Assembly: GCA_913777665.1 (NCBI GenBank)
Contig: CAJYTF010000026.1
Span: 55,226-119,225 of the forward strand
Length of the DNA: 64,000 bases
Source: an uncultured Myroides sp.
Lineage (GTDB): Bacteria; Bacteroidota; Bacteroidia; Flavobacteriales; Flavobacteriaceae
Direction of reading: 5' to 3'
The notes under the pieces were generated by a model. That model had not been told where the DNA came from and did no database searches. It saw only the letters and a list, made by a program, of their open reading frames with translations. A program made the position numbers and the translations under genes. Below are positions 40,469 through 64,000 of this stretch, in pieces (the first letter of the stretch is position 1; the number at the start of each line of letters is the position of its first letter).

Positions 40469-40475
40469 TTAAGAA

Positions 40476-40893
40476 TTGAGTAGTGAGATTTTAGAATTTA
40501 GATTTCTATCGTATGCATAAAATTGAAGATTTAATAGTTTGGAAGAAAGCAATTCAGCTAACAAAAGAAGTTTATTTGCTTTCAGCGAAAATTCCTAATG
40601 ACGAAAAATTTGGAATTATTTCTCAAATTAAAAGATGCTCTGTTTCAATCCCTTCGAATATAGCTGAAGGAGCTGGTAGAAATTCAAATAACGAGTTTAA
40701 ACATTTTTTAGGAATTGCAAATGGATCGTGTTATGAGTTATAAACTCAGTTAATATTAATAAAAGAATTAAATCTAACAAATGAAATAATTGAAATTGAT
40801 TCTTTAATTGAAAAATGTATCGAAATTCAAAAAATGATTTATTCTTTCAAAACAAAAATTGTACAGTCTAATATCTAACATCTCAATACTAAA
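40476..40893. mobile_element. IVS-like element: four-helix-bundle ORF bracketed by imperfect inverted repeats
   Basis: Left arm 40476-40505 TTGAGTAGTGAGATTTTAGAATTTAGATTT; reverse complement of right arm 40864-40893 TTTAGTATTGAGATGTTAGATATTAGACTG. Confidence 0.5.
40513..40878 (+). pseudogene. Four helix bundle protein (S23/23S rRNA IVP family, TIGR02436-like) with in-frame TAA at 40741-40743
   Basis: LIVWKKAIQLTKEVYLLSAKIPNDEKFGIISQIKRCSVSIPSNIAEGAGRNSNNEFKHFLGIANGSCYEL*TQLILIKELNLTNE...; the family continues past the stop in the same frame. Confidence 0.85.
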
Positions 40894-40911
40894 ATCTAAA
40901 AACAAGAAAAT

Positions 40912-42093: not shown

Positions 42094-42111
42094 TTTAAGA
42101 AGATAGAACAT

Positions 42112-42527
42112 AGAGAAAAGAGAATAGATTGTTATGAATGTAGGAAAGAGACATAATTATAAGAATTTAAAGATTTGGCAATTAGCATTGGAGATAGCTA
42201 ATAACATTTCTGATATTCTATTAAATTTCCCTATTCATGAAAAATACAGCCTTAATTCGCAAATTAGTCGTTGTTCTATTTCAATCCCATCGAATATTGC
42301 AGAAGGTTCTGCGAGAACAGATAAATCTTTTAGTCATTTTCTAGATGTTTCTTTAGGATCATCTTTTGAATTACTCACACAATTACATATTGCACAACAT
42401 AGAAATTATATCAATCAAGAGCTTTTTAATCAACTCGAAAATAAAATAGAAGAATTTCAACGCATGACAATGGCTTTTCAAAACAATTTGAAATAGTCTA
42501 TCATCTATATTCTATTTTCTTTTCTCT
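42112..42527. mobile_element. Second IVS-like element: four-helix-bundle ORF bracketed by imperfect inverted repeats
   Basis: Left arm 42112-42128 AGAGAAAAGAGAATAGA; reverse complement of right arm 42511-42527 AGAGAAAAGAAAATAGA (1 mismatch in 17). Confidence 0.5.
42134..42496 (+). CDS. Four helix bundle protein (S23/23S rRNA IVP family)
   Basis: LKIWQLALEIANNISDILLNFPIHEKYSLNSQISRCSISIPSNIAEGSARTDKSFSHFLDVSLGSSFELLTQLHIA. Confidence 0.92.
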   Translation: MNVGKRHNYKNLKIWQLALEIANNISDILLNFPIHEKYSLNSQISRCSISIPSNIAEGSARTDKSFSHFLDVSLGSSFELLTQLHIAQHRNYINQELFNQLENKIEEFQRMTMAFQNNLK

Positions 42528-63805: not shown

Positions 63806-63847
63806 ATTATTCATTATTCATTATTCATTATTCATTATTCATTATTA
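63806..63847. repeat. Heptanucleotide tandem repeat (ATTATTC)5 plus a near-complete sixth copy
   Basis: Direct reading of the sequence. Confidence 0.95.
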
Positions 63848-64000
63848 TTTATAATATTTATTTCACTAAAGATAATATTTATTCATTACATCCATATATT
63901 TTATTTACTTTTGTTCTCGTTATTTAAGAAAATATTCGTGCTTAATTTATATTATTGCTGAACCGAAATACCACATCGAAAATAAAAGAGCAAATAATGT

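What the first reader, a model, noticed from the sequence alone, without database searches (positions are those of the whole stretch)
42112..42527. IVS-like insertion #2 in the same operon, with different terminal arms
Seen: a second, diverged four-helix-bundle ORF (42134-42496) sits between thiolase and acyl-CoA dehydrogenase. It is bracketed by AGAGAAAAGAGAATAGA (42112-42128) and the complement of AGAGAAAAGAAAATAGA (42511-42527), 16 of 17 matching. The arms differ in sequence from element #1 but have the same layout. Inference: two independent acquisitions rather than a local tandem duplication. This suggests a stem-bracketed mobile-element class defined by architecture rather than a fixed terminal sequence.
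Basis: partly seen in the sequence, partly recalled or inferred. Interest (0 to 1): 0.75.

Follow-up and report, generated by a model that had tools for sequence, protein, structure and literature searches.

The report
Ring-protein gene between five-heptad arrays
A small gene for a ring-shaped five-subunit protein sits between two mirror-image arrays of five 7-letter repeats, is swapped repeatedly between species at the same spot, and the same layout recurs around its relatives in several bacterial phyla, suggesting that the ring reads the repeats and that puzzling bacterial 7-letter repeats belong to such elements.

Summary
They are two inverted arrays of exactly five heptads, AGA-N4 (42098-42128) and TCT-N4 (42497-42527), the only such arrays in 64 kb (0 expected). 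Between them is an intact PF05635/TIGR02436 gene (IVP, the protein of 23S rRNA intervening sequences; a solved relative is a homopentamer). Element #1 has the same layout: five NAG heptads on each side. Flanking inverted arrays are found at 88% of 134 Flavobacterium IVP loci, 86% of 78 wider (mostly Bacteroidota) loci and 34 of 37 gammaproteobacterial-class loci, and around cyanobacterial plasmid IVPs. The period is almost always 7 or 8, and the modal unit number is five. Unit sequence ('dialect') follows the IVP family, across sites and genera. At this thiolase/acyl-CoA-dehydrogenase gap, families with different dialects replace each other against the species tree, empty sites exist, and ORF-less hairpins of matching dialect lie elsewhere. 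IVP is under purifying selection. Best explanation: a horizontally moving cassette whose pentameric IVP reads five repeats, one per subunit. Arrays, coupling and horizontal replacement are shown; binding, one-unit-per-subunit reading and the chemistry of movement are inferred.

The parts
42098..42128 (+). 5' array of element #2: five AGA heptads (AGA at 42098, 42105, 42112, 42119, 42126)
   Evidence: one of only two matches in 64 kb, 0 expected
42134..42496 (+). IVP2 gene, 120 aa, PF05635 23S_rRNA_IVP / TIGR02436 four helix bundle protein; intact
   Evidence: 2.1e-32; 5.4e-29; PDB 2gsc 6.5e-15
42497..42527 (-). 3' array of element #2: five TCT heptads (TCT at 42497, 42504, 42511, 42518, 42525), directly after the IVP2 stop codon
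42528..42543 (+). A-rich leader left between the element and the ATG of acyl-CoA dehydrogenase
40471..40501 (+). 5' array of element #1: five NAG at exact 7-nt spacing (AAG, GAG, GAG, TAG, TAG)
   Evidence: sequence printed (chain of 5, period 7)
40513..40878 (+). IVP1 reading frame of element #1, interrupted by one in-frame TAA at codon 77 (degraded copy)
40868..40897 (-). 3' array of element #1: five CT at exact 7-nt spacing (40868, 40875, 40882, 40889, 40896)
   Evidence: sequence printed

Best explanation
This is a horizontally moving cassette made of a gene for the homopentameric four-helix-bundle protein IVP and two inverted arrays of five degenerate heptads. Shown by sequence: the arrays, their period of 7 or 8, their preferred number of five, their coupling to the IVP family, the repeated replacement at the same operon gap in different species, the empty sites, the ORF-less hairpins of the same dialect, and purifying selection on IVP. 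Inferred: the IVP ring binds one array as a single strand, one NAG-containing unit per subunit, much as the TRAP ring binds its NAG triplets. In the operon mRNA the two arrays fold into a long imperfect stem between the cistrons; it begins at the upstream stop codon and leaves the A-rich leader of the next gene free, which makes the insertion tolerable. IVP, expressed from the host operon, acts on its own arrays and in trans on ORF-less hairpins of the same dialect. How the DNA is moved (ssDNA at forks, a host recombinase, or an RNA/reverse-transcriptase route with IVP acting like Avd) is not determined.
For: Arrays. Five units: 5'-arm counts for 4/5/6 units are 31/47/12 in Flavobacterium, 17/24/10 in wider Bacteroidota, 8/14/2 in the gammaproteobacterial class (3' arms 35/46/5, 11/28/2, 5/17/3), null mode 3; five is modal in both period-7 and period-8 families, so the count and not the length is held. 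Coupling: IVP identity vs arm 4-mer similarity for pairs at different sites and genomes r=0.275 (permutation sd 0.023, max 0.062); cosine 0.664 above 70% IVP identity vs about 0.13. Replacement: dialect needs 3 changes on the IVP tree but 17 on the species tree (shuffled 19.9); third-position divergence G105-G030 is 0.073 for IVP vs 0.344 for thiolase, whereas close species with different dialects have 0.60 vs 0.14. S1 hairpin and S2 IVP share dialect in 27 of 29 genomes, 20 of 21 in one clade (p 4e-5). Purifying selection: dN/dS 0.056 and 0.080. Dispersed copies: 204 vs 0-1, 36 vs 0, about 31 vs 12. Pentamer: PDB 2gsc relative, described as a homopentamer in PMC4990558.
Against: No binding or movement was tested. 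The element carries no recombinase, nuclease or reverse transcriptase. Many cyanobacterial and some proteobacterial arrays are longer than five, and 8-14% of loci do not exceed the shuffle level. Some families lack the AG core (TGTATAATG, AATTACGAA). Third-position divergence can differ between genes without transfer, and exchange by ordinary homologous recombination between species is not excluded as the carrier. One IVP gene in the window (element #1) is broken.
Confidence: 0.55

Rival explanations
1. The arrays are DNA ends: IVP binds the inverted arrays as double- or single-stranded DNA and brings the ends together for a host or borrowed recombinase; the RNA hairpin is a by-product.
For: Arrays stand inverted at both ends like terminal repeats; ORF-less hairpins look like non-autonomous copies. 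Occupied first sites end TAGA...TCT(T)AAAA and the stop codon changes from TAA (13/14 empty) to TAG (49/52 occupied), as if insertion used a TA. Antisense insertions exist in cyanobacterial plasmids (L330-L332) and a few in Proteobacteria.
Against: In Bacteroidota the IVP is sense to both neighbours in 147/153 loci; no recombinase is carried; a 7-bp step does not keep one helical face; single non-inverted arrays are common.
Confidence: 0.25
2. IVP is mainly a TRAP-like RNA regulator: ring binding to the 5' array opens the hairpin and changes expression of the operon and of genes carrying ORF-less arrays; horizontal exchange is ordinary recombination.
For: Strong purifying selection; the legible strand of most dispersed arrays examined lies in the 3' part of the upstream gene's mRNA, right after the stop codon; arrays in trans match the resident IVP.
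Against: Presence is patchy and dialects switch between sister species, odd for a host regulator; the same IVP family sits in unrelated operons of other genera (dapB/lepB, proB/argF).
Confidence: 0.15
3. Neutral account: heptads arise by polymerase slippage, arms are kept complementary by hairpin-templated repair, and IVP is a passenger.
For: Slippage has been proposed for bacterial heptanucleotide repeats (reported in PMC4679880 and PMC4692102); long pure (AATATAG)n arrays exist.
Against: In Flavobacterium the core is kept while the spacers differ from unit to unit; the number of five is held for two different periods; coupling to IVP family holds across sites and genera; dN/dS is low.
Confidence: 0.05

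Closest known systems
23S rRNA intervening sequences (IVS) of Coxiella, Leptospira and others
   Same: Homologous IVP/S23p gene inside a stem of inverted arms; horizontally acquired; about 430 nt (PMC4990558)
   Different: Here between protein-coding genes of operons, not in an rRNA helix; arms are five-heptad arrays; IVP is under purifying selection, whereas the Coxiella ORF is described as undergoing reductive evolution
Avd, the accessory protein of diversity-generating retroelements
   Same: Weak similarity of the protein (NF033474 E 3.2e-5; PF22296 bAvd 3e-6); homology of PF05635 and Avd is proposed in PMC10053308
   Different: Scores are below both families' cut-offs; no reverse transcriptase, template or variable repeat in the element
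Heptanucleotide tandem repeats of cyanobacteria, Xanthomonas (GGGAATC) and Beggiatoaceae (TAACTGA)
   Same: Period-7 intergenic arrays, often near gene ends, sometimes inverted pairs, number varying between strains (PMC4692102, PMC4679880)
   Different: Found in those papers without a protein partner and without an agreed role; here the arrays bracket IVP genes and match the resident IVP's dialect. GGGAATC and TAACTGA themselves were not tested
TRAP ring (from general knowledge)
   Same: A ring oligomer reading tandem NAG repeats separated by short spacers is the proposed mode
   Different: TRAP has 11 subunits and 2-3-nt spacers; IVP is an unrelated fold, a pentamer with 4-5-nt spacers; binding not shown
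REP/RAYT elements and MITEs
   Same: Short intergenic hairpins dispersed in the genome; RAYT-like genes occupy the same operon gap in some species (S1 of L060 and L064)
   Different: REPs are fixed palindromes served by a Y1 transposase; here arms are IVP-specific arrays and no transposase was found

Membership tests
PF05635 / TIGR02436 protein family | Protein scores above the curated cut-off | tested here: met
   111.9 vs 33.8 bits; 100.6 vs 24 bits
23S rRNA IVS | Encodes IVP inside complementary arms | tested here: met
23S rRNA IVS | Lies within an rRNA gene helix | tested here: not met
   Lies between thiolase and acyl-CoA dehydrogenase genes; no Rfam match at gathering threshold in the window
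23S rRNA IVS | Excised from the precursor RNA by RNase III without ligation | not testable with these tools
   needs RNA work
DGR Avd | Scores above the Avd cut-off | tested here: not met
   24.2 vs 80 bits; bAvd 28.1 vs 40
DGR Avd | Adjacent reverse transcriptase and TR/VR | tested here: not met
   Only IVP lies between the arms; neighbours are beta-oxidation genes by their translated ORFs
DNA transposon / insertion sequence | Encodes a transposase | tested here: not met
   The only ORF of at least 80 aa in the element is IVP
DNA transposon / insertion sequence | Fixed terminal repeats and target-site duplication | tested here: inconclusive
   Arms vary by family; ORF-less copies end TAGA...TCT(T)AAAA at TA, compatible with but not proving a TA duplication
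Heptanucleotide tandem repeat (STRR/SSR) class | Intergenic tandem repeat of period 7 | tested here: met
TRAP-like ring reader | Ring oligomer whose subunit number equals the number of NAG repeats | tested here: inconclusive
   Modal unit number five; a relative is a solved homopentamer; binding not tested

The most novel reading that the evidence does not exclude
IVP proteins are pentameric rings that read five tandem heptads (or octads), one unit per subunit, with a dialect specific to each IVP family. IVP plus arrays is a general mobile or regulatory system across Bacteroidota, Proteobacteria and Cyanobacteria, and it accounts for many of the unexplained heptanucleotide repeats of bacterial genomes. 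The rRNA IVSs would be one special landing place of it.
Probability: 0.45. Interest if true: 0.93.

Novelty: new variant of a known kind. Interest (0 to 1): 0.86.

Why it matters
IVP genes are common and annotated only as 'four helix bundle protein' or 'S23 ribosomal protein' with no known function. Heptanucleotide repeats of bacterial genomes are described in the papers read here without an agreed role or mechanism of spread. The sequence evidence ties the two together, gives a concrete code (five units, NAG core, family-specific spacers) and a ring-reader model. This makes both the function of IVP and the origin of these repeats directly testable with one purified protein and a set of short RNAs or DNAs.

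Tried and rejected
Recent tandem duplication of element #1 into #2: rejected (36-38% identity, different arms, orthologues at each site in other species). Block transfer of S1-thiolase-S2 together: not favoured, since the tree dominated by thiolase carries little dialect signal (35 changes vs 38 shuffled). Purine-first orientation as proof of transcript orientation: dropped, because an inverted repeat reads the same on both strands. One genome-wide dialect per genome: rejected for distant sites (within-genome cosine 0.148), though neighbouring sites share it. The very high null scores came from loci not turned to the IVP strand; redone correctly. Avd/DGR membership: scores below cut-offs. Anti-phage defence library (PADLOC): no match. 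Rfam: no match in the window. Paper searches found no description of IVP genes with heptad arrays; the library holds only open-licence papers, so subscription literature may contain one.

Full report
What is there. The ORF 42134-42496 and the 17-nt inverted arms are exactly as described. The protein is a clear PF05635/TIGR02436 member related by sequence to PDB 2gsc (6.5e-15) and 2rld; the 2gsc protein, XCC0516, is described as a homopentamer in PMC4990558. The pattern AGA-N4 repeated five times occurs twice in the 64 kb, at 42098-42128 on the plus strand and 42497-42527 on the minus strand, with none in 100 shuffles. The second array starts on the base after the IVP stop codon. Element #1 shows the same design: five NAG at exact 7-nt spacing from 40471, and five CT at exact 7-nt spacing from 40868 (sequence). 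Its IVP frame has an in-frame TAA.

Is it chance? For 134 distinct Flavobacterium IVP loci the flanking inverted-repeat score has median 33 against 17 for dinucleotide shuffles; 88% exceed the shuffle 95% level and 76% the 99% level, against 6.6% and 3.4% when flanks are swapped between loci. Of 58 genes of the window only 8.6% exceed the 95% level, and this locus scores highest. Among other ORFs beside the wider IVP loci 13.7% do. In 78 loci from a genome scan, mostly Bacteroidota, 86% exceed it. In 37 loci from genomes of the class of a betaproteobacterial MAG (G198), not chosen for arms, 34 exceed the 99% level and 30 of 31 periodic arms (a count that includes four cyanobacterial plasmid loci) have period 7. 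IVP genes on cyanobacterial plasmids are bracketed by arrays such as (TAGGGAG)n in Nostoc edaphicum, (TTTTAGC)n in Pseudanabaena and (AGGTGAC)n in Anabaena.

The array code. Arms are periodic with 7 (75 loci) or 8 (36 loci) and almost nothing else. In the two dialects at this operon AGA-to-AGA spacing is 7 in 622 cases against 19 at 6 and 45 at 8; the AGA core is kept while the four spacer bases vary between units. Counting consecutive units, five is the modal number in both arms in Flavobacterium, in wider Bacteroidota and in the gammaproteobacterial class, with a sharp drop after five, while shuffles peak at three. Five is modal for both period-7 and period-8 families, so the number rather than the length appears to be held. 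Cyanobacterial and some proteobacterial arrays are longer. Since the solved relative is a pentamer, one unit per subunit is the natural reading; this is inference.

Coupling of protein and arrays. IVP identity predicts arm similarity for pairs at different genomic sites in different genomes (r 0.275, permutation maximum 0.062; cosine 0.664 above 70% identity against about 0.13 baseline). Within one genome, arms at different sites are no more alike than background (0.148). The ATAGA-dialect family of this locus is found in other genera with the same arms between dapB and a signal-peptidase (lepB-like) gene (L249, L250) and between proB and an argF-like gene (L251) (gene names read from the translations).

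Movement. At the thiolase/acyl-CoA-dehydrogenase gap, 89 species show 49 IVP elements, ORF-less hairpins, unrelated palindromes, and short empty gaps such as 32 nt in close relative G022 and 35-38 nt in G188 and G038. Among IVP elements the dialect changes 3 times on the IVP tree but 17 times on the tree of the neighbouring genes (shuffled 19.9). Same-dialect IVPs are less diverged at third positions than thiolase in about 86% of pairs in the closest well-populated bin (0.193 vs 0.254), with extremes such as 0.073 vs 0.344; close species with different dialects have 0.60 vs 0.14. This is repeated horizontal replacement at one site. By the Nei-Gojobori dS the excess is weaker (IVP below thiolase in 64-70% of pairs), so the size of the effect is uncertain, but the tree conflict does not depend on it.

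Action in trans. At the neighbouring gap (HCDH/thiolase) many species have an ORF-less hairpin of about 90-110 nt. It is absent in others, where the gap is 6-7 nt. Occupied gaps begin TAGA and end TCT(T)AAAA, and the stop codon is TAG in 49/52 occupied and TAA in 13/14 empty gaps. Its dialect agrees with that of the IVP at the second gap in 27 of 29 genomes, and in 20 of 21 within one clade of close species (p 4e-5), although dialects switch against the species tree. The hairpins fold well (z -2.4 to -7.2). Genomes with a GCAAG-dialect IVP have more GCAAG words genome-wide than ATAGA genomes of the same clade (p 4e-4); the two sites themselves contribute a few of these. In Proteobacteria, exact dimers of the heptad of a genome's own IVP are dispersed in that genome and nearly absent from eleven others: AGGGCCA 204 vs 0-1, AGAATTC 36 vs 0. 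TTCTGAG dimers occur 75 times in G323 and, in G335, only four times, all at its IVP locus. Many dispersed arrays begin right after a stop codon on the sense strand.

Function of the protein. IVP2 orthologues evolve with dN/dS 0.056 (ATAGA) and 0.080 (GCAAG), near thiolase's 0.04, so the protein is used. In Bacteroidota the ORF is sense to both neighbours in 147/153 loci and the arm starts a median 6 nt after the upstream frame ends, which fits expression from the host operon. Antisense copies exist in cyanobacteria and a few in Proteobacteria.

Mechanism and what remains. I favour a cassette whose ring protein reads its arrays as a single strand (0.55). The carrier of movement is unknown. DNA-end binding (0.25), a TRAP-like regulator (0.15) and neutral slippage (0.05) are the rivals. 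The element is not a member of the 23S rRNA IVS class in the strict sense because it is not in an rRNA gene, and not an Avd by score; it shares IVP and layout with the former. Known heptanucleotide repeats in Xanthomonas, Nostoc and Beggiatoaceae were described without an agreed role; linking them to IVP is the wider claim. The specific GGGAATC and TAACTGA families were not tested here.

Limits. Loci were taken by profile rank, so the strongest IVP members are over-represented, and related loci are not independent. The 79-locus scan used a query close to IVP2, which favours this operon. Identification of the genus as Flavobacterium rests on named relatives of the scan, not on a direct label.

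Noticed in passing
window 63806-63852: A third heptad array, (ATTATTC)n, about 6 perfect units, at the window end, which is also the contig end; no IVP was seen next to it.
   Followed up: partly
window 40513-40878: IVP1 of element #1 is broken by an in-frame TAA at codon 77, while its arrays are intact.
   Followed up: partly
L060 and L064, S1 gap: RAYT-like Y1 transposase genes with REP palindromes occupy the same HCDH/thiolase gap in other species (family judged from the sequence by eye).
   Followed up: no
L053, L063, L067, L157, S2 gap: A different palindromic repeat (GTCATTTCGACGAAGGAGAAATC...) fills the thiolase/ACAD gap in several species; this slot attracts several kinds of hairpin elements.
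   Followed up: no
G321:C1: The strand of dispersed AGAATTC arrays is uniform over long stretches (+ at 0.08-1.46 Mb, - at 2.29-2.85 Mb apart from the IVP locus itself), as if tied to replication or to leading-strand genes.
   Followed up: partly
L329 and L333: In Pseudanabaena and Anabaena plasmids the IVP with its heptad arrays sits between cas6 and cas4 of a CRISPR locus (type I-D by the cas1d annotation in L333).
   Followed up: no
G052, G077, G114, G075: Long pure (AATATAG)n arrays of up to about ten units in ATAGA-dialect relatives.
   Followed up: no
L303 (Limnohabitans sp. MAG20): This record carries Flavobacterium-like thiolase (89%) and IVP, probably a binning contamination.
   Followed up: no
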